The translations under genes and the position numbers were made by a program. Of a DNA stretch of 64,000 nucleotides, positions 53,990 to 64,000 are shown one piece after another (positions within the stretch are counted from its first letter, which is position 1; each line of letters opens with the position of its first letter). The notes under the pieces were generated by a model. It was not told the DNA's origin, ran no database searches, and saw only the letters and a list, made by a program, of their open reading frames with translations. The stretch comes from Haemophilus parainfluenzae (GTDB taxonomy: Bacteria > Pseudomonadota > Gammaproteobacteria > Enterobacterales > Pasteurellaceae): contig NZ_UGHY01000002.1 in NCBI RefSeq assembly GCF_900450995.1, positions 1,979,001 to 2,043,000 of the forward strand, in the 5' to 3' direction.

Positions 53990-56172
53990 TTAAAACTCAA
54001 CTTTCGTGTTAAGGATAAATTCACGTCCATAACCTAATGCAACAGGGATTAACGTGTTTGTTGCGTTACCAGAGGTAGATGGATAGTAAGTTTTATCTGT
54101 TAAGTTTTTACCATTAAGTTGGAAAGAGACTTTCTTGCCAGAGATTTTGGTATCGTAAGCAATAAAGGCATCATACACCACGGCATGAGGTAATTTGTAT
54201 GCTTTTGTATAAGTATTATTGTAGGCATACCAGGAACCTAAATAACGAGCACCACCACCAACACGGATGTTACCAAAATCAAATTCACCTACGTTATAAG
54301 CTAAGAATAGAGAAGCTTGATGTTTTGGTACACCAGAAAGTTGTTGATTTACTGCATCAGGATAAAGCTCATTTTCAAGTGATTTTACTTTGGTGTATGT
54401 ATAGTTAGCTGCTACGCTTAGACTATCCGTAATTTGACCATTAAGATCGAATTCCACACCACGAGAACGTTGTTTGCCGACGATATTCAATTGCGCATTT
54501 GAACCAGAACCAACAGCCTCAGCAACATTACGTTTGCTGATATTGAATAATGCAAGTGTCGCATTAAAGCCTGAGTTTTCGTATTTTGCACCAATTTCAA
54601 AAGATTTACCTTGTTCTGGTTTTAAATCGCCGCTAACTGGTGTTGCCACACTCATTTGTGGACGGAAAGACTCAGAGTAGTTTGCAAAGGTCGCAATATG
54701 TGGCGTAAATTTATATGCGGCACCTAATTGATACAATAATTTACCATCGTGCTGATCGGTATTTCCGGTTTTTGTTAGATTTTGACCTTTTTTACAGTTT
54801 GCCGCATTTAAGCAATGACGTCCTGCAAATTGATCAAAATACTCATAACGTAAACCGCCCGTCATAATAAAGTTATCTGTAAAGTAGGCGGTATCTTGAA
54901 TATAAACACCAACGGTTTTGAGATAGTTATATTGGTAGGCATTGCCGTTACCATTTTTATGTTCCGCAACAGGGCTGGTATAGTTTGGATTATCAATATT
55001 GATATCAGAATTCATGATGCCTTGGTTATAAATAGGACCAATATCGCGAATATTACGCATAGTATCAATCCCGCTACAAAGCGGTTAGCAATATCACCAA
55101 TACCAAATTCACCAACGATATTTAATGTACCACTATGAACACGTTGATCGCCTTGTTGCTGTTCAATTGCACGGCGGGCTGTACGTGTTTTAACGTTAAC
55201 ATTTGTAATACGAGCTTGATCGTAGAAATATTTGTAACGAGCATAGCTGTAACCTGCATTTAATTTCCAACCATCACTTAATTTGTGTTCAATTTTGAAA
55301 TCGATGTTATCGGTTTTTGCCGTGGTTTCATTATTTGGCTCATCTAAACGACGCGATACAGGAATATCCGGTAATGCATTAGTTGCCGTTAAAAGATTTG
55401 TACCACGATCAAATGGCTCAAGAATATCTTTGTGTTCATAAGAAAGAAGCACTTTAGTTTTATCATTTTCCCAAGAAAGAGAGGGTGCGTAAGTCGTATT
55501 TTTCACTTTGCCAAAATTACGCCAGTAGTCTTTTTCTTGTTTGTCATAGATAAAGCGGTAAGCAAAACCATTTCCTAAACCACCAGTAAAATCTAATTGC
55601 GTTCCCCACAGGCTATGATTACCTAAGGTTCCACCAACGACATAACGTGGTGTTTGTTGTGGTTTTTTAGTAATGATATTAACTACACCACCTGGATCTT
55701 GAATACCATAAAGTACGGATGCAGGTCCTTTTAAAACTTCAACGGTTTCAGTTGTCGCGCTAAAGTTTTTAGCTGGGCCAGCTTGTAAACCGTTACGCAT
55801 AATTGAGTTATCGCGGTTTCCACCGAAACCACGTTTTTGGATAGCATCAAACATACCACCTAACGTATTCGCTTGACTCACACCACTGACGTTATAAAGA
55901 GCATCAATGAGTGATTCAGGTTTGCGATCTTCTAGTAGTTTAGTTGAAAGAATGTTTACTGTGTTTGGCGTGTCGAATACTGGCACTTCAGCTTTTGATA
56001 CGACAGATGTCCCAGTCATTTGGTAACCATTTTGTTTAATCCCCGTATCTTGAACGTTAATTTGCTCAAGCGTTTCGGTATTTGTATCTACGGTCTGCTC
56101 AGTTTCTGCAAACGTAGAAATGGAAAAAGTGGTTAAAAGTGCGGTTGAAATAAGGCTTAATTTAAAATTCAT
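53990..56172 (-). pseudogene. TonB-dependent siderophore receptor, frameshifted
   Basis: Outer-membrane receptor of the TIGR01783 siderophore class, about 727 residues if restored. It starts at ATG 56172 with signal peptide ending STFA. The plug shows [34 protein letters not shown] and [25 protein letters not shown]. The first frame runs to about residue 365 (IANRFVAG) and then enters a nonsense tail ending at 55012. The correct barrel continues in the next frame as [16 protein letters not shown] and ends in FILNTKVEF with terminal Phe. Adding one G to GCGGGATTGAT (55069-55075) restores the frame. It may be a pseudogene, a reversible mutation or a sequencing error. A Fur-like box and promoter lie upstream. 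Confidence 0.85.
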
Positions 56173-56205
56173 AATTGCTTCCCAATAGATAATAAGAGAG
56201 CCCAA

Positions 56206-56300: not shown

Positions 56301-56334
56301 AAAGAAAAAATCCTAAGCTAAAAAGCTTGGGATT
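56301..56334 (-). terminator. Minus-strand terminator with no gene attached
   Basis: AATCCCAAGC and GCTTAGGATT (minus strand, one mismatch) form a stem followed by TTTTTTCTTT. No minus-strand gene ends just before it. It would fit the terminator of a tRNA whose body was separated by insertion of the element to the right. Confidence 0.6.
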
Positions 56335-56340
56335 GCAATA

Positions 56341-56351
56341 TGGTGCACTAG
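56341..56351 (-). other. Possible attachment-site core (tRNA 3'-end-like)
   Basis: On the minus strand the sequence reads CTAGTGCACCA, which would suit a 7-base acceptor strand, discriminator A and CCA. It is followed within 10 bases by the orphan terminator. No tRNA body precedes it here; it would lie at the far end of the element, outside the window. This marks the probable left boundary of the mobile element. Only weak evidence. Confidence 0.3.
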
Positions 56352-56521
56352 CTGAACCCGAATTTGCTTGTATTACATTGATTTTAAATGTTTATTTTTA
56401 AAGGGCAAAAATCTTGTTACTAAGCTTGTTACTAAAAATCAAATTCACTAAAAATTTATGATAGTTTCTGATGCCATAATACCACTAATAAGCCGTGCGT
56501 TAAAAATTTTATAGAAAAACT

Positions 56522-56622
56522 GTTCACCTTGTTCACCAATCCTTAAAACTCTTTATTTATTATATAGTTATATTCTTTTCTATTGTTCACCAACTGTTCA
56601 CCATTGTTCACCTTTGTTCACC
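56522..56622 (+). repeat. Six GTTCACC iterons in two clusters around an A/T-rich core
   Basis: Exact GTTCACC copies start at 56522, 56531, 56585, 56596, 56606 and 56616. Two are on the left and four on the right, 9-11 bases apart, about one helical turn. Between them are about 47 bases of nearly pure A/T. The plan matches replication origins of phage satellites (iteron clusters flanking an A/T-rich melting region). They could also be repressor sites. The rest of 56350-56520 is A/T-rich with no gene. Confidence 0.7.
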
Positions 56623-56697
56623 AATCAAAAAAAGATATCTCGATACAGAATATTTAGTCTATAACTGTTCAAAATTTAAGCAACCAAACAATCTTAA

Positions 56698-56724
56698 CTT
56701 ACCGTATCTAATCGTAACTAAACT
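56698..56724 (+). promoter_or_regulatory. Shared 14-bp motif and -10 box before the capsid operon
   Basis: CTTACCGTATCTAA (56698-56711) is repeated exactly at 63494-63507. In both places a -10-like hexamer (TAAACT here, TAAAAT there) starts exactly 21 bases after the first base of the motif. No good -35 exists. This looks like an activator-dependent promoter used twice in the element. Confidence 0.55.
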
Positions 56725-56791
56725 ATTGAAAAATAAGATATTTATTTAATAATCAAAACGCTATATATTATATTTTGACTTAATAGAAGTC

Positions 56792-56805
56792 GTCTAAATT
56801 TAGAC
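56792..56805. promoter_or_regulatory. 14-bp perfect palindrome before the capsid gene
   Basis: GTCTAAATTTAGAC is self-complementary and lies 22 bases before the capsid ATG, in the leader of the operon. Possible operator or RNA hairpin. Confidence 0.4.
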
Positions 56806-56827
56806 TAAAAAATCTTATAAGGAATAG

Positions 56828-58024
56828 ATGAATATGTTTAAAAAATTAATTGAGTTACGCCAACAAAAGGCGGAAAAAGTCGCAGAAATGCGCTCAATGC
56901 TTGAAAAAGCAGAAAAAGAAAATCGTTCATTGAATGAATCTGAATCAGTGGATTTTGAAAAGCTGAAAGATTTAGTTAAACAGATGAGCGATGAAATCAG
57001 CAAATATGAGGCGGTGGCTGATGAAGAACGTAACCTTAACGAACAATCTCAACAGGTAGAACAACGTAACATGAAACAACTTTCAAATGATGAGTTACGC
57101 CATTATGTAAAAACTGGTGAACTTCGCAATTTAACTACGGCTAACGGTGAAGATGGTGGATATTCAGTTATCCCACAGTTAGACAAAGATGTAATGAAAC
57201 GCTTAACAGACGATAGCGTAATGCGCCAACTTTGTAACGTAGTACGCTTACCGGTTGGAGCGAAAGAATACAAAAAATTAGTATCGGCTGGCGGTGCAGC
57301 AGTAGAACACGGCACAGAAGGCACAGCACGCAACGGCACAGCAACCCCGAAACTTCATGAAGTAACAATCGCTTTAAATTCAATCTATGCTTACCCTAAG
57401 ACTACACAAGAAATCTTAGACTTCTCAAGCATTGATGTTTTAGGTTGGCTAACTGATGAAATTTCTGAGACCTTCACAGAAACAGAAGAAACTGATTTAA
57501 CTTCCGGTGATGGTAACAAGAAATCAAAAGGCTTTTTAACCTATCAACGCACAACCGAAGATGACAAAACTCGACAATTCGGCAAACTTCAAAAAATTGA
57601 AGTGGCAGGCGTAGCGAAGATTGATGCAGATACTTTAATCGATGCGTTCTATACACTTCATAGCAAATACCGCAAAAATGCAGTGTGGGTGATGTCATCA
57701 ACGATTGCGGCAGCATTACAAAAACTTAAAAACAAAAACGGCGATTATATCTGGCGCGATGGTTTAACAGCCGATGCCCCAGCAACATTATTAGGTCGTC
57801 CAGTCCACTTCTTAGAAACAATGCCGACAGGTGGAGCAAATAAAGCAGTAATTGCCTTCGGTGACTTCAAACGCGGATATTTCATTGTAGATCACGAAAC
57901 AGGCGTGCGAACCCGTCCGGACAACTTAACCGAACCAGGATTCTATAAAGTACACACCGATAAATATTTAGGCGGTGGCGTAGTAGATTCAAACGCTATC
58001 AAAGTGATTGAGACAACAGCATAA
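56828..58024 (+). CDS. HK97-type phage major capsid protein
   Basis: Main shell protein of 398 residues. The first about 100 residues are a charged coiled coil (LRQQKAEKVAEMRSMLEKAEKENRSL), the delta scaffold domain removed by the protease. The HK97-fold body begins near TTANGEDGGYSVIPQ and contains the spine-helix and P-domain stretches (YPKTTQEILDFSSIDVLGWLTDEISETF; GRPVHFLETMP; FGDFKRGYFIVDH). An alternative ATG six bases on has a better-spaced AAGGA. It is the first gene of the packaging operon, whereas in ordinary HK97-like phages capsid comes after terminase, portal and protease. Confidence 0.94.
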   Translation: MNMFKKLIELRQQKAEKVAEMRSMLEKAEKENRSLNESESVDFEKLKDLVKQMSDEISKYEAVADEERNLNEQSQQVEQRNMKQLSNDELRHYVKTGELRNLTTANGEDGGYSVIPQLDKDVMKRLTDDSVMRQLCNVVRLPVGAKEYKKLVSAGGAAVEHGTEGTARNGTATPKLHEVTIALNSIYAYPKTTQEILDFSSIDVLGWLTDEISETFTETEETDLTSGDGNKKSKGFLTYQRTTEDDKTRQFGKLQKIEVAGVAKIDADTLIDAFYTLHSKYRKNAVWVMSSTIAAALQKLKNKNGDYIWRDGLTADAPATLLGRPVHFLETMPTGGANKAVIAFGDFKRGYFIVDHETGVRTRPDNLTEPGFYKVHTDKYLGGGVVDSNAIKVIETTA

Positions 58025-58055
58025 ATCATAGAGGGGCGAAAGCCCCTTTTTTTGC
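58025..58055 (+). terminator. Small hairpin between capsid and protease genes
   Basis: GAGGGGCGAAAGCCCCTTTTTTTG: GGGGC pairs with GCCCC around GAAA, followed by seven Ts. A partial terminator here would make much more capsid mRNA than downstream mRNA. Confidence 0.75.
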
Positions 58056-58069
58056 TTAATAGGTGAAAT

Positions 58070-58636
58070 ATGAATAAAGAATTTGAAATCCGCTCCGCAA
58101 CACTTTCAGCCGATGAAGAAAATCAAAAGCTAGTAGGTTATGCGGTGAAATGGAATAGCCCTTCACAAGTGCTTTACTGTGATTTTGTGGAATCCTTTGC
58201 GCCTAAAGCTTTCAGTGACAGCCTAGCGAGTGGCGAAGATGTGCGCGCACTCTTTGAACATGACTACACCAAGTTACTAGGTCGAACAAGTGCGGGAACA
58301 TTAAAGCTAGAAGAAGATTCAATCGGCTTACGCTTTGAACTAATTCCGCCCGATACAACAATCGGAAAAGATTTATTAGTTAGCGTTTTTCGCGGTGATA
58401 TTACAGGGATGTCTTTCGGATTCAGAGCGATTAAAGAAGAATGGAATTTTGATGTAGAGCCTTATCAAAGAAACGTAATTAAAGCAGATCTCTTTGAGGT
58501 TACAGTAACAAGCGTTCCAGCCTATCCGGAAAGCAGCGTAGAAATCGCTAAGCGTTCAATGGTCGCAGCAAAAGAACAAACACAGGGTAAATCAAACACT
58601 ATCTTAAAACGCTGGCTTGATGTATCGGAGGCTTAA
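58070..58636 (+). CDS. HK97-family prohead protease
   Basis: Serine protease (U35 family) of 188 residues that removes the capsid delta domain during maturation. VGYAVKWNSPSQVL is the N-terminal motif, the catalytic His is in ALFEHDYTKLLGR (near residue 63) and the Ser in DITGMSFGFRA (near 108). It lies 45 bases after the capsid gene and directly before the portal. Confidence 0.93.
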   Translation: MNKEFEIRSATLSADEENQKLVGYAVKWNSPSQVLYCDFVESFAPKAFSDSLASGEDVRALFEHDYTKLLGRTSAGTLKLEEDSIGLRFELIPPDTTIGKDLLVSVFRGDITGMSFGFRAIKEEWNFDVEPYQRNVIKADLFEVTVTSVPAYPESSVEIAKRSMVAAKEQTQGKSNTILKRWLDVSEA

Positions 58637-58637
58637 T

Positions 58638-59864
58638 ATGTGGAATCCTTTTAGACGAAAAGAGCAACGCAGCGAACCAATAACTATTGATGAATTCCTA
58701 TCTTACATGGGCGTAAATAATACAGGTGCGGGCGAATATGTCAGCCCACAAACGGCAGAGGCTCTACCAGCGGTTATGAACGCCGTAACAGTAATCGCCG
58801 AGGCGGTGGCATCTATGCCTTGTTATCTGTACGCACTAAAAGAAGATGGCCGTGAAAGAATCTACCGTCACCCCGTTGAATATCTTTTAAACGAAATGCC
58901 AAACCGCAATCAAACGCCTTACCAGTTTAAATATACGATGATGCGCCATTGTTTGCTAACTGGTAATGCTTACGCGGTGATTGAGTGGAATAACAAGGGC
59001 GAACCTGTAAGCCTTACACCTTACCAGCCGAGCGCAGTAAATATCTTCCGTAAAGTAACAGGCGAGCATATTTACCAAGTAACGGACTTAAACGGAGTTA
59101 CTAAAAACTATCTTCAAGATGAAATCTTACACTTACGCCATAGTTCCCTTGATGGATTTATGGGGCGTTCACCTGTAACTGTTTGCCGTGAAACGATTGG
59201 ATTAGGTTTAGCACAACAACGACACGGTGCAGCAATCATGAAAAACGGATTGATGGCAAGCGGACTAATCTCAACGGCTGAATGGCTAGACGATGCGAAA
59301 GCACAGAAAGCAGTGAAAGCCTTAGAGCGTTACAAAGGCGCAAAGAACGCGGGGAAAACACCAATCCTTGAAGGCTCAATGGAATACAAACAATTAGGCA
59401 TGACAAACCAAGATGCCGAATGGTTACAAAGTCGAACCTTCACAATTTCCGATATAGCCCGAATCTACAACATAAGCCCGATTTTCCTACAAGATTATTC
59501 CAATAGTAGCTATGCGAATTTCAGTGAGGCTAGTAGAGCGTTCTTATCACAAACCTTGCGCCCATGGCTAACTAACTTTGAACAACAGCTTAAAGATGCC
59601 TTAATGATTGACTTAACGAGCAATAGCAAGAAACGGCACTTAATCGAATTTGACACAAGCGACTTACTCCGCACCAGTCAAAACGAACGTTTCAATAGTT
59701 ATGATGTGGCAATTAAAGCTGGCGTAATGTCACCTAACGAAGTGCGCAGACGTGAAGGCTTACCGCCTTATGCTGGCGGTGATGAATTCAGCCAAGCATG
59801 GAAACAAACCGTAGAAGTTAAACGCGGTGATAGCGTAAACGAAAACGAGGTGAACGATGCCTAG
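58638..59864 (+). CDS. Phage portal protein (HK97 family)
   Basis: Dodecameric vertex through which DNA enters. I start at ATG 58638 (MWNPFRRKE), one base after the protease stop and preceded by CGGAGG, giving 408 residues. Typical stretches are ALPAVMNAVTVIAEAVASMPCYLY, RHCLLTGNAYAVIEWN, HLRHSSLDGFMGRSP, and FTISDIARIYNISPIFLQDYSNSSYAN. Its stop overlaps the next gene by 8 bases. Confidence 0.94.
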   Translation: MWNPFRRKEQRSEPITIDEFLSYMGVNNTGAGEYVSPQTAEALPAVMNAVTVIAEAVASMPCYLYALKEDGRERIYRHPVEYLLNEMPNRNQTPYQFKYTMMRHCLLTGNAYAVIEWNNKGEPVSLTPYQPSAVNIFRKVTGEHIYQVTDLNGVTKNYLQDEILHLRHSSLDGFMGRSPVTVCRETIGLGLAQQRHGAAIMKNGLMASGLISTAEWLDDAKAQKAVKALERYKGAKNAGKTPILEGSMEYKQLGMTNQDAEWLQSRTFTISDIARIYNISPIFLQDYSNSSYANFSEASRAFLSQTLRPWLTNFEQQLKDALMIDLTSNSKKRHLIEFDTSDLLRTSQNERFNSYDVAIKAGVMSPNEVRRREGLPPYAGGDEFSQAWKQTVEVKRGDSVNENEVNDA

Positions 59865-60201
59865 AATGATTAGAGCCGGTAAATATAACAAGGCGATAAG
59901 TTTACAAAAACAAGTAAACGAAACTAATGATTATGGCGGATTTGTAAGTAAGTGGAAAACCGTTGCGAATATACGCGCAGCGGTTGAACCGTTACAAGGT
60001 AGAGAGTTCTTCTCCGGTGCGGTGCCATTAAATGAAAATACTGTGCGCATTCGCATACGTTACGGAACTAATGTTGATAACACTATGCGCGTGAAATATG
60101 GGAACCGTTCGCTAGAGATAATCAACATTATTGATAGTAAAGAAGCGCACAAAGAACTTCAGCTTATTTGTAAGGAGCTAACCGGCAATGGTGGAAATTA
60201 A
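59857..60201 (+). CDS. Phage head closure / head-tail adaptor protein
   Basis: A 114-residue protein of the SPP1 gp16-like head-closure family: MIRAGKYNKAISLQKQVNETNDYGGFVSKWKTVANIRAAVEPLQGREFF is diagnostic, followed by RIRIRYGTNVDNTMRVKYGNRSLEI. It would seal the portal and receive a tail. In a tail-less satellite this is the part that joins helper-phage tails. It overlaps the portal by 8 bases and the connector by 14. Confidence 0.88.
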   Translation: MPRMIRAGKYNKAISLQKQVNETNDYGGFVSKWKTVANIRAAVEPLQGREFFSGAVPLNENTVRIRIRYGTNVDNTMRVKYGNRSLEIINIIDSKEAHKELQLICKELTGNGGN

Positions 60202-60502
60202 TTTAACGATTGATGAAATCAAAGCGCACTTAAATCTCGATCACGATTTAGATAATGAGTTACTGGAAGCCTATAAGGTGGCCGCATTGGAAGTATGCCA
60301 AAAGCATATTGGCAAAACCTTTGGGGAAGAAGAAACGGAAAAGACCATACCTTTTACCTCGGCGATTAAGATTGGTTGTTTAATGTATATCGCCTATCTC
60401 TACACGAACCGCGAAGCCGTCACAGACTTAGCCAACCTTAAACCGGCACCAATGACGATTTCCGCATTGTGGGAAGTGTATAGAGAACCGTGCGCTTACT
60501 AA
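60188..60502 (+). CDS. Phage gp6-like head-tail connector
   Basis: A 104-residue helical connector of the HK97 gp6 family, showing INLTIDEIKAHLNLDHDLDNELLEAYKVAALEVCQKHIGK and then IGCLMYIAYLYTNREAV. It binds below the portal. The gene order adaptor-connector here is the reverse of many phages (connector-adaptor), matching the overall inverted order of this module. Confidence 0.88.
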   Translation: MVEINLTIDEIKAHLNLDHDLDNELLEAYKVAALEVCQKHIGKTFGEEETEKTIPFTSAIKIGCLMYIAYLYTNREAVTDLANLKPAPMTISALWEVYREPCAY

Positions 60503-60516
60503 GGATTTAGTAACCG

Positions 60517-60879
60517 ATGCCATACCAACCATTAAGACGTTGTAGCTATCCTGGATGTAGAAACAAAGTAAAGTCCGGTAGATGCGAGGAGCACAAGCCA
60601 AAGGACACACGCCCAAACAGTAGCGCACGCGGTTACGACCACAAGTGGAGCAAATACCGCGAGCAATACTTAAAGCATCATCCCCTTTGTGTGATGTGCT
60701 TAGAGCAAGGCAAATATACTCCGGCAACAGTGATAGACCATATCAAGCCGGTAGAGAACGGACAATCCGATCCATTGTTTTGGGTAGCAAGCAATCATCA
60801 GCCTTTATGTCGTGATTGTCACAGCTATAAAACACGAGTGATAGACCAACGCGGATTTGGTGCGAAGAAGATTGATTAG
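60517..60879 (+). CDS. HNH endonuclease of the packaging module
   Basis: A 120-residue HNH nuclease. It begins with a zinc-type CSYPGCRNKVKSGRCEEH, and its core is HPLCVMCLEQGKYTPATVIDHIKPVENGQSDPLFWVASNHQPLCRDCHSYKT with two CxxC pairs and the DH...N...H catalytic residues. In HK97-type cos systems such proteins help terminase cut cos. It sits directly before the G/C-rich cos-like island and TerS. Confidence 0.9.
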   Translation: MPYQPLRRCSYPGCRNKVKSGRCEEHKPKDTRPNSSARGYDHKWSKYREQYLKHHPLCVMCLEQGKYTPATVIDHIKPVENGQSDPLFWVASNHQPLCRDCHSYKTRVIDQRGFGAKKID

Positions 60880-60940
60880 ACCGGGTGGGGGCAATTTAAA
60901 AAAGAAAGTGGCAACCCTTCGGAACCGCCCCCCTATACAA
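60880..60940. other. G/C-rich island between HNH and TerS, candidate cos site
   Basis: Within an A/T-rich genome this gap contains TGGGGGC (60886-60892) and the inverse-complement-like GCCCCCC (60927-60933), plus AACCCTTCGGAACCG between them. In cos-type phages with HNH and P27-like TerS, cos usually lies next to these genes. No cleavage site can be proven from sequence. Confidence 0.45.
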
Positions 60941-60981
60941 ATTTTTACGCAAGGTAATTTTTTTGAAAATAAGGAAATACA

Positions 60982-61359
60982 ATGACAACAAAAAACAAGA
61001 AAAAAACGCATAATCCACCTAGTTTTTTAGATCCAATCGCGAAAACAGTATGGAAAGAACGAATTCCACAACTTCTTGAACGTGGTGATATTCAAGATGC
61101 GGACTTAATTCACCTTGAATTATATTGTGTTAATTACTCTCTTTTCCGTGCTGCAGTTGAGGATATTCATAAAAACGGCTTTTCAATAGTAAATAGCCAA
61201 GGCACACAATCAAGAAAGCCCGCACTGTCAGCTAAAGCTGATGCAGAAAAAGTGATGGTGAAAATGTCCTCACTGTTAGGCTTTGATCCAGTTAGCCGTA
61301 GAAAAAATCCTGTTGAAGTTGATTCAACCGATATGATTGATGAAATCCTCACAATGTAG
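60982..61359 (+). CDS. Terminase small subunit, P27 family
   Basis: DNA-recognition subunit of the packaging motor, 125 residues. PPSFLDPIAKTVWKERIPQLLERGDIQDADLIHLELYCVNYSLFRAA is the P27-family N-terminal helix region and MSSLLGFDPVSRRK the C-terminal motif. In satellites, a distinct TerS or its own cos would direct packaging of the element rather than the helper. It precedes TerL by 7 bases. Confidence 0.92.
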   Translation: MTTKNKKKTHNPPSFLDPIAKTVWKERIPQLLERGDIQDADLIHLELYCVNYSLFRAAVEDIHKNGFSIVNSQGTQSRKPALSAKADAEKVMVKMSSLLGFDPVSRRKNPVEVDSTDMIDEILTM

Positions 61360-61366
61360 GCTAAAT

Positions 61367-63034
61367 ATGGCAATCTGGCACGCATACGCAGAGAAAATTC
61401 AATCAGGTGAAATAGTGGCTTGTAAGAAGATAAAACAAGCCGTAGCGCGTTATTTTAACGATTTAAACAACCCCGATTATTTCTTTGATCAAAGTGCGGT
61501 AGAAAAATTTATCGCTTTCTCGAAACTATGCCCACACGTTAAAGGACACTTACGCGGTGAGCCAATTATTCTTTCAGATTGGCAAGTTTTCCTCTTTGCC
61601 AACATTCTGGGCTTTAAACGAAAAGATACAGGATTAAGAAAATATCGCTCTGCTTACGTTCAAGTGGCAAGAAAAAACGCTAAATCAACGGTAGCAGCCG
61701 TTTTAGCCAATTGGTTTTTGGTGATGGAAGGCGGCCAACAGGATATATACACGGCAGCCGTGAGCCGAGACCAAGCCCGAATCGTTTTTGATGATGCGCG
61801 TCAAATGTGCTTACTTTCGCCTTTACTGAAAAAACGGCTCAATATTCAACAGCACAAACTCATCAACCCTAAGAACAACAGTATCATGCGACCGCTTGCC
61901 GCCAAATCTTCAACCATTGAAGGCACAAACCCTAGTTTAGCGATTGTTGATGAATATCACCTACACACGGACAACAGCGTCTATAGCGCGTTAGAGCTAG
62001 GACAAGGCGCACGCCCAGAAGGTTTGCTCTTTGCTATTACAACTGCGGGAAGTAACGTGATTTCGGCTTGTAAACAGCACTATGATTATTGCGCTCAAAT
62101 CCTTGAAGGGAATGAGCAGAACGATAGCTTGTTCGTATTGATTTTTGAACTAGACGAAGAAAACGAAATCGACAAACAAGAGAACTGGATAAAAGCCAAT
62201 CCCAATATTGGTAAATCCATTCCTTACCTTGATTTTGAGAACACGATTAAAAAAGCGAGGGGGATTCCTTCCGAATGGGTGGAAATGCTTACCAAGCGAT
62301 TTAACGTATGGTGTCAAGGCACAACCCCGTGGCTAGGCGAAGGAAACTGGGCGCAATGCGAACGGCAGTACACCGAAAGCGATTTACTTCACCAAGATTG
62401 TTATTTAGGACTGGATTTATCCAGCACCAATGACTTAACCAGTCTTTGCTATACCTTTCCACAAGGGAATAAAGTGCGGTTAGTTACTCGGCATTATATC
62501 CCTGAATTTCAACTTAATAACGTGGCAAATAAAAACCGTGCGATGTATCGAAACTGGGTGCGTAGTGGTTGGCTGATTGCAACCGAGGGCGACTGTATCG
62601 ACTACGACAAAATCAGAGATGATATTTTGAAAGATGCACAACGTTTCAATATTAAGATGATTGGCTTTGACGTATGGAATGCAACCCATTTACGCACACA
62701 ATTACAAGCGGCTGGGCTTGAGGTTGAACCCTTCCCGCAAACCTATCAACGATTTAGCCCGGTGGCGAAAAGTGCAGAAGTATTAATAAATAGACAGATG
62801 ATAGAACATCATGGCGATCCAGTGCTTACCTGGGCGCTATCCAATGTGGTGATGGAAACCGATGCCAACGCCAACATTAAACCAAACAAGAAGAAAGCAG
62901 CAAACAAAATAGACCCCGCCGTAGCGTTCCTGATGTCTTTCGGAATTTATCAACTTGAATACGGTGATTTAATTTTCGAACTATCAGACGAACACAAACA
63001 GGCACTAGAAGAATTTAACGGATTGGATATATGA
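61367..63034 (+). CDS. Terminase large subunit (ATPase-nuclease)
   Basis: Packaging motor and cos nuclease of 555 residues, starting at ATG 61367 (MAIWHAYAEKIQSGE). The ATPase has an atypical Walker A ARKNAKSTVAAVLANW (near residue 104) and Walker B SLAIVDEYH (near 195), the form usual in HK97-like TerL. The nuclease begins GLDLSSTNDLTSL (first Asp near residue 347) with further acidic residues near FDVWNATHLR. The stop overlaps the next gene start (ATGA). Two uptake signals lie inside. Confidence 0.93.
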   Translation: MAIWHAYAEKIQSGEIVACKKIKQAVARYFNDLNNPDYFFDQSAVEKFIAFSKLCPHVKGHLRGEPIILSDWQVFLFANILGFKRKDTGLRKYRSAYVQVARKNAKSTVAAVLANWFLVMEGGQQDIYTAAVSRDQARIVFDDARQMCLLSPLLKKRLNIQQHKLINPKNNSIMRPLAAKSSTIEGTNPSLAIVDEYHLHTDNSVYSALELGQGARPEGLLFAITTAGSNVISACKQHYDYCAQILEGNEQNDSLFVLIFELDEENEIDKQENWIKANPNIGKSIPYLDFENTIKKARGIPSEWVEMLTKRFNVWCQGTTPWLGEGNWAQCERQYTESDLLHQDCYLGLDLSSTNDLTSLCYTFPQGNKVRLVTRHYIPEFQLNNVANKNRAMYRNWVRSGWLIATEGDCIDYDKIRDDILKDAQRFNIKMIGFDVWNATHLRTQLQAAGLEVEPFPQTYQRFSPVAKSAEVLINRQMIEHHGDPVLTWALSNVVMETDANANIKPNKKKAANKIDPAVAFLMSFGIYQLEYGDLIFELSDEHKQALEEFNGLDI

Positions 63035-63318
63035 TTAGATGTAAAGAGGCAAAACAGAACTTACTAATAGCAGCGGTGAAACACTATAAGAAATCTACCG
63101 CACTTTTCACTTTTATTAGCTTGTATGATGATTATGAACCATATCCACTGGACGAAGTTATCTACATTCTTCAATGTAAATGCGATGCAGCAAAACGAGA
63201 AATAAACAACAGACCAAATAGCCCCAATATGGAAGTGTTAGAAACAATTTATCATATCGCGCACAAAAATCTTGAAGATATGAAAAAGGCAGAAAGAAGA
63301 ATTGCGAAAAGAAGATAA
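63031..63318 (+). CDS. Small protein of unknown function after TerL
   Basis: A 95-residue basic protein with no domain I recognise. Mostly helical by appearance, it ends in a charged segment (LEDMKKAERRIAKRR). Its start overlaps the TerL stop by four bases and it is the last gene of the operon, so it is probably co-expressed with packaging genes. A strong terminator follows. One uptake signal lies inside. Confidence 0.65.
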   Translation: MIRCKEAKQNLLIAAVKHYKKSTALFTFISLYDDYEPYPLDEVIYILQCKCDAAKREINNRPNSPNMEVLETIYHIAHKNLEDMKKAERRIAKRR

Positions 63319-63321
63319 AAT

Positions 63322-63356
63322 AAATCCCTACGTTTCACAACGTGGGGATTTTTTAT
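63322..63356 (+). terminator. Terminator of the packaging operon
   Basis: AAATCCC(TA)CGTT pairs with AACG(TGG)GGATTT around TCAC, then a run of Ts. It closes the operon after the small ORF. Confidence 0.88.
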
Positions 63357-63435
63357 ACGTGACTACATCGCACGAACATATTATCAAATTGCTAAATTCT
63401 TAAAATTTTCCCTAAAAAATGCTTTAGGGTACGTA

Positions 63436-63449
63436 CTACAAATTTGTAG
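63436..63449. promoter_or_regulatory. 14-bp perfect palindrome upstream of the last gene
   Basis: CTACAAATTTGTAG is self-complementary. It shares the CTA...AATT...TAG pattern with the palindrome before the capsid gene, though spacing differs. A TATAAT follows at 63459. Possible operator. A further inverted pair CCCTAAA/TTTAGGG lies at 63410-63429. Confidence 0.4.
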
Positions 63450-63493
63450 CAAAGTTATTATAATCTAAGCGCAAAAATAAGAAATAAACGTAG

Positions 63494-63520
63494 CTTACCG
63501 TATCTAAACTTTGATAAAAT
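63494..63520 (+). promoter_or_regulatory. Second copy of the shared 14-bp motif and -10 box
   Basis: CTTACCGTATCTAA (63494-63507) with TAAAAT at 63515-63520, the same 21-base offset as at 56698. It lies about 40 bases before the ATG at 63558. Confidence 0.55.
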
Positions 63521-63557
63521 AGAACAAGAAATAAACAGGGAAAACAAGGAGGAAAGT

Positions 63558-63941
63558 ATGATTAAATCCGTTTTATCCGCATTTGGTTTATTTGTATTTT
63601 CTGCTTTAGATTTTTTGTTGTTTTTAGCCATATTGCTTTTTGTTGGCTTGTTGGTTTTCATCTTTTGGCCAATATTAAAATGGCCTTTACTAGCTTTTCT
63701 AATAGGTGCTATTGCCTTCTTTTGTTATCTAATATACAAGATAAAAGAGAAACCAAAACCGCTAGAACAAGACGAAATATTATCTAGCTGGGCGGAACAG
63801 GAATTACAACGCCCTATCATTCAACGGATTTTACAAAAACAAGAGGAAAATAAACCGTTCATTAGCGGAACAATAACGCATATTGGAAATGACGGAAAAG
63901 AAACTCGATTAGGCAATATCACTATCAATTTAAAGGGATAA
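63558..63941 (+). CDS. Membrane protein of unknown function in the mobile element
   Basis: A 127-residue protein with an N-terminal hydrophobic half forming two or three helices (LFVFSALDFLLFLAILLFVGLLVFIFWPIL; LLAFLIGAIAFFCYLIYKI) and a soluble C-terminal half (QELQRPIIQRILQKQEENKPFISG...). A good GGAGGAAAG ribosome site precedes it. I know no family for it. It has its own promoter that shares a motif with the packaging operon, so the same regulator may drive both. A role in lysis, superinfection exclusion or helper interference is possible but unproven. The final 59 bases of the window show no feature. Confidence 0.65.
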   Translation: MIKSVLSAFGLFVFSALDFLLFLAILLFVGLLVFIFWPILKWPLLAFLIGAIAFFCYLIYKIKEKPKPLEQDEILSSWAEQELQRPIIQRILQKQEENKPFISGTITHIGNDGKETRLGNITINLKG

Positions 63942-64000
63942 TTAATCAAATAAAGCGCATCTAGGCTGATCCCCGAAAGCAAGAAACCTTATCTTGTTGG

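What the first reader, a model, noticed from the sequence alone, without database searches (positions are those of the whole stretch)
56330..64000. Capsid-to-TerL operon that looks like a capsid-forming phage satellite rather than a prophage
Seen: one operon in the order capsid, protease, portal, head closure, connector, HNH, TerS, TerL, then a small ORF and a strong terminator, with no tail, scaffold or lysis gene before the terminator. HK97-like phages normally run TerS-TerL-portal-protease-capsid-connector-adaptor-tail. Established: cf-PICIs carry this head and packaging set and take tails from a helper phage. Inference: this is the left part of a Pasteurellaceae cf-PICI. Odd point: the packaging operon sits next to the chromosome, with integrase and replication genes presumably on the far side, unlike the usual int-rep-ori-packaging order.
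Basis: partly seen in the sequence, partly recalled or inferred. Interest (0 to 1): 0.85.

Follow-up and report, generated by a model that had tools for sequence, protein, structure and literature searches.

The report
Tail-stealing phage satellite in Haemophilus
A 15-kilobase genetic parasite in a Haemophilus relative encodes its own virus-like head but no recognised tail, so it probably borrows tails from a phage, and its relatives differ in a linked set of neck genes that may decide whose tails they can borrow.

Summary
Past the window's right edge come AlpA, an Ash-like gene, a D5-type primase and a convergent tyrosine integrase, then tRNA-Val(GAC) and chromosome. Length 15,072 bp; no tail or lysis family recognised. 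Five of seven same-genus genomes without island TerL show the empty site. The capsid is about 61% identical to the solved capsid of cf-PICI EcCI2. This is a capsid-forming PICI (cf-PICI), a kind already reported in Pasteurella.

New here: Pasteurellaceae islands come with two neck kits. Islands with head-closure allele class 1 (the window's) never carry the tail-completion protein Ne1 (0 of 15) or a tail terminator (0 of 11 with that stretch held). Class 2 islands mostly do (Ne1 44 of 56; terminator 33 of 41). The genes lie at three places, and class 1 needs at least five changes on the portal tree. I read this as two ways of taking a helper's tail; untested. Induction, particles and helper could not be tested.

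The parts
56340..56362 (.). Left att site: displaced, altered copy of the tRNA-Val 3' end (one base missing, two changed); the intact copy lies at L002 17412-17435 (window numbering 71412-71435, outside the window)
   Evidence: Left/right comparison; the left-flank match to five empty-site genomes ends at L002 2362; sequence read back
56413..56437 (+). Tandem CTTGTTACTAA repeat, also present beside the integrase at the other end: likely integrase arm-binding sites
   Evidence: Direct repeat D2, k-mer comparison; binding role is inference
56340..64000 (+). In-window half of the 15,072-bp satellite; the rest runs to window-equivalent 71411 at tRNA-Val
56828..58024 (+). Major capsid protein, about 61% identical to cf-PICI EcCI2 capsid 9gyi
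   Evidence: PF05065; PDB 9gyi E 1.2e-137; title and identity
58033..58053 (+). Strong intrinsic-terminator-like hairpin between capsid and protease
58070..58636 (+). Prohead protease
   Evidence: PF04586
58617..59864 (+). Portal protein
   Evidence: PF04860
59857..60201 (+). Head closure protein Hc1, allele class 1
   Evidence: PF05521, phrog_25, allele classes
60188..60502 (+). Head-tail adaptor Ad1
   Evidence: PF05135, phrog_40
60517..60879 (+). HNH endonuclease
   Evidence: PF01844
60883..60974 (+). Predicted cos site: conserved G-rich / C-rich / AATTTTTACGCA block between HNH and TerS
   Evidence: Aligned in 29 of 35 elements; present in E. coli PE15; a related but different block in three HK97-type prophages looked at. 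Cleavage not shown
60982..61359 (+). Terminase small subunit
   Evidence: PF05119
61337..63034 (+). Terminase large subunit
   Evidence: PF03354, PF20441
63031..63318 (+). 95-aa ORF of unknown function (o95) at the place where most class 2 relatives carry the tail-completion protein Ne1; no sign that it is a Ne1
   Evidence: No Pfam, PHROG or PADLOC match; HHalign to the Ne1 family gives probability 0.1% from a shallow alignment
63558..63941 (+). 127-aa predicted membrane protein, variable cargo region
   Evidence: Weak sub-threshold DUF4131 match; no PHROG or PADLOC match

Best explanation
[quoted passage not shown] Shown by sequence: it sits in the 3' end of tRNA-Val(GAC) and carries an integrase, an AlpA-type regulator, a D5-type primase, a complete HK97-fold head set (capsid, protease, portal, adaptor, head closure), HNH and terminase, and no recognised tail or lysis gene. 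Inferred from the family: a helper phage triggers AlpA; the island excises and replicates with its primase; its head proteins build a small capsid; its TerS/TerL/HNH cut and package the island at its own cos site between HNH and TerS; the filled head takes a tail from the helper through its head-closure protein and leaves by the helper's lysis. The island has the short neck kit (head closure class 1, no Ne1, no tail terminator), so those two tail-interface proteins would also have to come from the helper.
For: Gene content. tRNA-Val and chromosomal flanks. Empty site in five same-genus genomes: L079, L080, L081, L084, L086. Capsid about 61% identical to 9gyi, 'cf-PICI EcCI2'. Island-type TerL 78-98% identical in full-length Pasteurellaceae matches against 29-35% in full-length prophage matches; the genome-contig scan adds relatives at 68-73% outside the family. 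dN/dS 0.03-0.31 in the 45 of 50 gene comparisons that could be computed. Conserved cos-like block in 29 of 35 elements. Definition of cf-PICI seen in PMC10690885 passages; Pasteurella among hosts and mean size 14 kb in PMC10803314 passages. A Pasteurella precedent, PmCI172: small 38-39 nm heads on Mu-like tails (PMC6092414 section 15).
Against: No induction, excision or particle data for this island. The left att copy differs from the tRNA end by one missing base and two substitutions, so present-day excision could be impaired. No resident prophage with a matching neck was found: head-closure and PF04860 portal searches of the genome find only the island. The genome has a Mu-like prophage and, judged from translations, a second contractile-tail prophage, but Mu-like prophages are not enriched in island carriers (15 of 34 against 44 of 106, Fisher p 0.84). 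Two same-genus genomes without island TerL (G072, G079) do not show the empty join: L082 shares the whole right-end query and L087 nearly all of it, including bases on the island side of the tRNA, so something else may sit there.
Confidence: 0.95

Rival explanations
1. It is a decayed HK97-type prophage that lost its tail and lysis genes.
For: All head genes have phage homologues; some relatives are broken (for example the L033 head closure is split, and several G086 copies are fragmented).
Against: Different gene order from local prophages, separate set for TerL and separate clade for head closure, precise 15-kb insertion with a PICI-type regulator and primase, purifying selection, and island-type TerL in 33 of 140 family genomes, most of those fetched having the same head-gene order.
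Confidence: 0.03
2. It is a gene transfer agent-like capsid cluster.
For: After EcCI2, the closest solved capsid is that of the Rhodobacter capsulatus GTA, about 30% identical.
Against: Carries integrase, AlpA and primase, has empty sites in relatives, uses different tRNAs in relatives, and has a conserved cos-like block; no tail family recognised.
Confidence: 0.01
3. The link between head-closure class and the absence of Ne1 and tail terminator is only shared descent or block recombination, without function.
For: Elements are mosaics, so blocks can move together. Exceptions: 12 of 56 class 2 elements lack Ne1 (L043, L050, L062, L071, L167, L199 and six loci of G086), and 8 of the 41 with 500 bp held before the capsid lack the terminator, among them L047, L070, L162 and L192 that do have Ne1. 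The Fisher tests ignore kinship.
Against: The three genes lie at three places (before the capsid, after the portal, after TerL), and on the portal tree class 1 needs nine changes, at least five forced by supported branches, with never a Ne1 or terminator. In phages head closure and Ne1 are neighbouring neck genes.
Confidence: 0.4

Closest known systems
cf-PICI EcCI2 (PDB 9gyi) and the E. coli PE15 element (L092)
   Same: Capsid about 61% identical to 9gyi; PE15 has the same capsid-protease-portal-head closure-adaptor-HNH-TerS-TerL order, a helix-turn-helix regulator, an Icd-like gene, a primase and no annotated tail gene. Neither Ne1 nor this terminator type was found outside Pasteurellaceae (0 of 55 and 0 of 44 loci holding the stretch)
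   Different: PE15 runs int-regulator-primase-capsid...TerL at fis; here capsid...TerL-cargo-AlpA-primase, then convergent int at tRNA-Val: the integration module sits at another place in the circular map
Pasteurella multocida elements deposited as phages Pmp7 and Pmp8 (OR544138, OR544139)
   Same: Same order with convergent integrase; TerL 85-86% identical
   Different: Pmp8 has head closure class 2, Ne1 and a tail terminator. Pmp7 has Ne1; its record starts inside the adaptor, so the other two genes cannot be judged
PmCI172 of Pasteurella multocida (PMC6092414)
   Same: Pasteurellaceae PICI with its own capsid homologue, small heads on helper tails
   Different: Sequence not available here; whether it has the full head set, or which neck kit, could not be checked
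vB_KppS-Ant (LR881103)
   Same: 16.5-kb element, TerL 70% identical, same circular order apart from the integrase; judged an induced prophage by its authors
   Different: Carries a tape measure gene after TerL; integrase between TerL and the regulator

Membership tests
cf-PICI | Own capsid, maturation protease, portal and head-tail connectors | tested here: met
   definition from a PMC10690885 passage
cf-PICI | Own TerS, TerL and HNH | tested here: met
cf-PICI | No tail or lysis genes in the element | tested here: met
   Pfam and PHROG scans of the element's listed ORFs. Nine ORFs have no family over cut-off, so an unknown tail protein is not excluded. Many class 2 relatives do carry two tail-interface genes
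cf-PICI | Integrase and site-specific insertion | tested here: met
   PF00589, tRNA-Val att and empty sites
cf-PICI | AlpA-type regulator and own primase | tested here: met
   PF05930 26.1 bits over cut-off 21; PF08706, PF19263, PF03288 over cut-off
cf-PICI | Size near 14 kb | tested here: met
   15,072 bp; mean 14 kb in a PMC10803314 passage
cf-PICI | Head proteins in the cf-PICI group, apart from phages | tested here: met
   9gyi; TerL 68-98% in relatives against 29-35% in full-length prophage matches
cf-PICI | Induced by a helper phage | not testable with these tools
   No lysate or expression data
cf-PICI | Small island-made capsids carrying helper tails | not testable with these tools
   Small-headed particles are reported only for Pasteurella multocida
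HK97-like prophage | TerS-TerL-portal-protease-capsid order followed by tail module | tested here: not met
Gene transfer agent | No integrase or replication genes; tail genes present (recalled) | tested here: not met

The most novel reading that the evidence does not exclude
Pasteurellaceae cf-PICIs use two alternative, exchangeable ways to steal a tail. Full-kit islands (head closure class 2 plus their own Ne1 and tail terminator) would cap and re-label helper tail tubes so that they fit island heads; short-kit islands (head closure class 1, the window's type) would imitate the helper's own head end and dock onto finished helper tails. Islands switch between the two by swapping head-closure alleles inside otherwise near-identical heads, together with gain or loss of the two distant tail-interface genes. 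If so, many cf-PICIs do not take only a complete tail, as the definition says, but supply part of the tail interface.
Probability: 0.4. Interest if true: 0.75.

Novelty: new member of a known kind. Interest (0 to 1): 0.5.

Why it matters
The island itself adds a Haemophilus member to a known satellite kind. The comparison it opened matters more: which protein decides whose tail a satellite head can take is, as far as I know, open, and here nature has made near-identical heads (for example L038 and L043: capsid 100%, portal 98%, adaptor 96%, head closure 56%) that differ at the neck. The linked head-closure, Ne1 and tail-terminator pattern names three proteins to test and predicts which islands depend on the helper for the whole tail end.

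Tried and rejected
Recent capture of the window's head-closure allele from a helper phage: rejected for the phages sampled, because 30 satellite and 21 phage head-closure proteins split cleanly (100/99) and class 1 lies on the satellite side; the tree tool warns of long branches. Head closure is still among the most phage-like head genes (to prophage L072: head closure 48%, protease 41%, HNH 37%, TerL 33%, portal 28%, capsid 21%; in a few prophages a short HNH stretch scores higher). Mu-like helper enrichment: none. Defence cargo in the window's island: no PADLOC match in seven ORFs. o95 as a divergent Ne1: no sign. Capsid fold: the AlphaFold model was poor (pLDDT 54), so the 9gyi match rests on sequence. 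A paper on Pmp8 by accession: none found. The founding cf-PICI paper and the 2025 chimeric-particle paper are recalled, not read; one DOI guess was not held. No print record of the neck-kit pattern turned up in the listings; most subscription papers are not in that library. First count of tail terminators (0 of 15 and 40 of 56) included loci cut at the capsid; the recount replaces it.
Full report
Setting. The window is G000:C2:1979001-2043000 of a 2.24-Mb genome. Two same-genus genomes match named contigs by length: G077 = Haemophilus parainfluenzae C2008003258 (378,611 bp) and G080 = Haemophilus sp. HMSC068C11 (422,537 bp), so the host is taken to be of the H. parainfluenzae group (inference). 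I fetched the 20 kb that span the window's end as L002; window coordinate = L002 coordinate + 54000.

Observation. Pfam confirms the eight head and packaging genes in the stated order. A 95-aa ORF follows. The strong terminator claimed after it is not supported; terminator-like hairpins with an identical 21-nt core stand after the capsid and after the primase.

The rest of the element. To the right come a 127-aa membrane-type ORF, a 320-aa ORF, AlpA, small ORFs, an Ash-like/repressor-like ORF (PF10554, phrog_1743), a 589-aa D5-type primase and a convergent tyrosine integrase, then tRNA-Val(GAC) at L002 17413-17489, then, by my reading of the translations, pyruvate kinase, dnaB, alr and pgi. 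No Pfam or PHROG tail or lysis family was hit by the element's ORFs; nine ORFs (95, 127, 320, 103, 136, 66, 68, 199 and 147 aa) have no family over cut-off.

Boundaries. The tRNA 3' end (L002 17412 on) has an altered copy at L002 2340-2362. Eleven same-genus genomes were searched, the own one included. Of the seven without an island-type TerL, five (L079, L080, L081, L084, L086) have the left flank running straight into tRNA-Val with a 24-29-base overlap; G072 and G079 do not. Measured from one ATGGTGC to the other, the insertion is 15,072 bp. A tandem CTTGTTACTAA motif lies inside both ends.

Relatives. TerL matches in 46 of 140 family genomes. Full-length matches fall in two sets: island-type at 78-98% and phage-type at 29-35%; a few fragments lie outside these ranges. 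Island-type TerL is in 33 genomes, and a 34th, G127, has island head genes near a contig end. The named scan kept the best 80 of 115 loci; outside Pasteurellaceae these are 68-73% identical, mostly Enterobacterales with some Orbaceae and one Aeromonas (orders recalled). Of 45 loci examined for architecture, 25 have the window's arrangement, 10 Pasteurellaceae loci have int before the capsid (six of them from one genome, G086), PE15 has int-primase-capsid...TerL, and 7 are incomplete or unclear. The script also counted L073 and L076 as int-first; by annotation L073 has int between TerL and the regulator, and L076 was not settled.

Capsid identity. PDB 9gyi matches at E 1.2e-137 and is titled a cryo-EM structure of cf-PICI EcCI2, 60-61% identical. 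The next solved capsid is the R. capsulatus GTA.

Packaging site. A DNA block between HNH and TerS is conserved in 29 of 35 elements that could be aligned (22 of 35 fit a strict pattern) and in E. coli PE15; three HK97-type prophages have a related but different block at the same place. The linear record of vB_KppS-Ant ends inside the left part of this block and begins just past its right part, lacking the middle that PE15 has. That fits DNA ends there, though depositors often start records at TerS. Cleavage in the window's island is inference.

Selection. dN/dS of ten window genes against five relatives is 0.03-0.31 in 45 of 50 comparisons, five being saturated.

Neck alleles. Among 144 element pairs with portal identity of 85% or more, head closure is under 65% identical in 72, adaptor in 29, TerS in 18, and capsid, protease, HNH and TerL in none. 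Breakpoints are sharp: in L038 against L043 DNA identity falls from about 95% in portal to 45-71% across head closure and returns to 93% in the adaptor. Two allele classes result. A PHROG scan of 112 ORFs lying between capsid and integrase in 13 elements found 'tail completion or Neck1' (phrog_5) in nine (25 of 36 families shown, only one of the nine named). I took the nine by position after TerL, where the window has o95; three more of them were then checked by name. With a profile built from these nine, after removing near-copies (104 loci to 76; 71 with known class and enough sequence), Ne1 is present in 0 of 15 class 1 and 44 of 56 class 2 elements (Fisher p 1.9e-8, which ignores kinship). 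A lax search finds nothing Ne1-like in any of the 17 class 1 loci.

Tail terminator. Pmp8's annotation pointed to a tail terminator before the capsid; it is PF06141/phrog_37. Among elements with at least 500 bp held before the capsid its relatives occur in 0 of 11 class 1 and 33 of 41 class 2 (Fisher p 1.3e-6, same caveat). A whole-genome Pfam search agrees: none of the 7 genomes with a class 1 island has PF06141 anywhere, while 21 of 27 with class 2 islands have it next to the island, by my reading of positions. The window's island has only about 470 bp between left att and capsid and no ORF of 40 aa or more wholly inside it.

Independence. On a portal tree of 65 elements class 1 needs nine changes, at least five forced by supported branches. 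In 43 of 48 phage loci Ne1 is found, in each directly after head closure; the five misses include the three own-genome prophage loci. In lambda-like prophage L331 a Ne1-like gene precedes the terminator. Outside Pasteurellaceae neither gene was found: Ne1 0 of 55, terminator 0 of 44 loci that hold the stretch. These are searches with Pasteurellaceae profiles; the terminator profile also found nothing in the 48 phage loci, which must have terminators of other families, so divergent ones would be missed.

Function of the neck genes. [quoted passage not shown] Ne1, defined as the gp16.1 homologue, is usually placed Ad1-Hc1-Ne1-Tc1 in type 1 necks (PMC4362835 passages). Full-kit islands would therefore supply part of the tail end; short-kit islands would leave that to the helper. 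This step is inference.

Helper. The genome has a Mu-like prophage (Portal_Mu at C2:1568480) and, judged from translations, another contractile-tail prophage, but no other PF04860 portal and no other head-closure relative. A Mu-like helper is reported for P. multocida PmCI172, and small-headed contractile particles were seen in five P. multocida isolates (PMC8008546 passages). Mu-like prophages are not enriched in island carriers, so this is only a candidate.

Verdict. The island is a cf-PICI with high confidence, ordinary as a kind. The two-kit neck pattern is the new part, well supported as a pattern and untested as a mechanism.

Noticed in passing
L073 2036-4333 (LR881103, vB_KppS-Ant): This 16.5-kb Klebsiella element, described in print as a filamentous ssDNA phage and induced prophage, looks like a cf-PICI and carries a tape measure gene (phrog_2854, 590 bits) with no other tail gene annotated.
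   Followed up: partly
   Followed up: partly
window 53990-56205, - strand: The TonB-dependent-receptor-like gene beside the island is split between two overlapping frames, so it may be broken or switchable (by reading of the translations).
   Followed up: no
OR544138 and OR544139 (L074, L075): Pasteurella 'phages' Pmp7 and Pmp8 look like islands of this kind, not complete phages.
   Followed up: yes
cargo ORFs of 13 relatives (A4): Relatives carry anti-repressor-like and defence-like genes, including 1TM-TIR in 2 and PDC-S48 in 3 of 112 ORFs.
   Followed up: no
L140 1780-5545: CRISPR-associated-looking genes lie beside the Mu-like prophage in the own genome, judged only from the starts of their translations.
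   Followed up: no
satellite tail terminators, L346: Island tail terminators differ from each other (median 36%) about as much as from phage ones (best match median 39%); one of the 'phage' loci used, L346, may itself be an island fragment.
   Followed up: partly
G072 and G079, beside tRNA-Val (L082, L087): Two same-genus genomes without island TerL share sequence on the island side of the tRNA, so a different element may use the same site.
   Followed up: no
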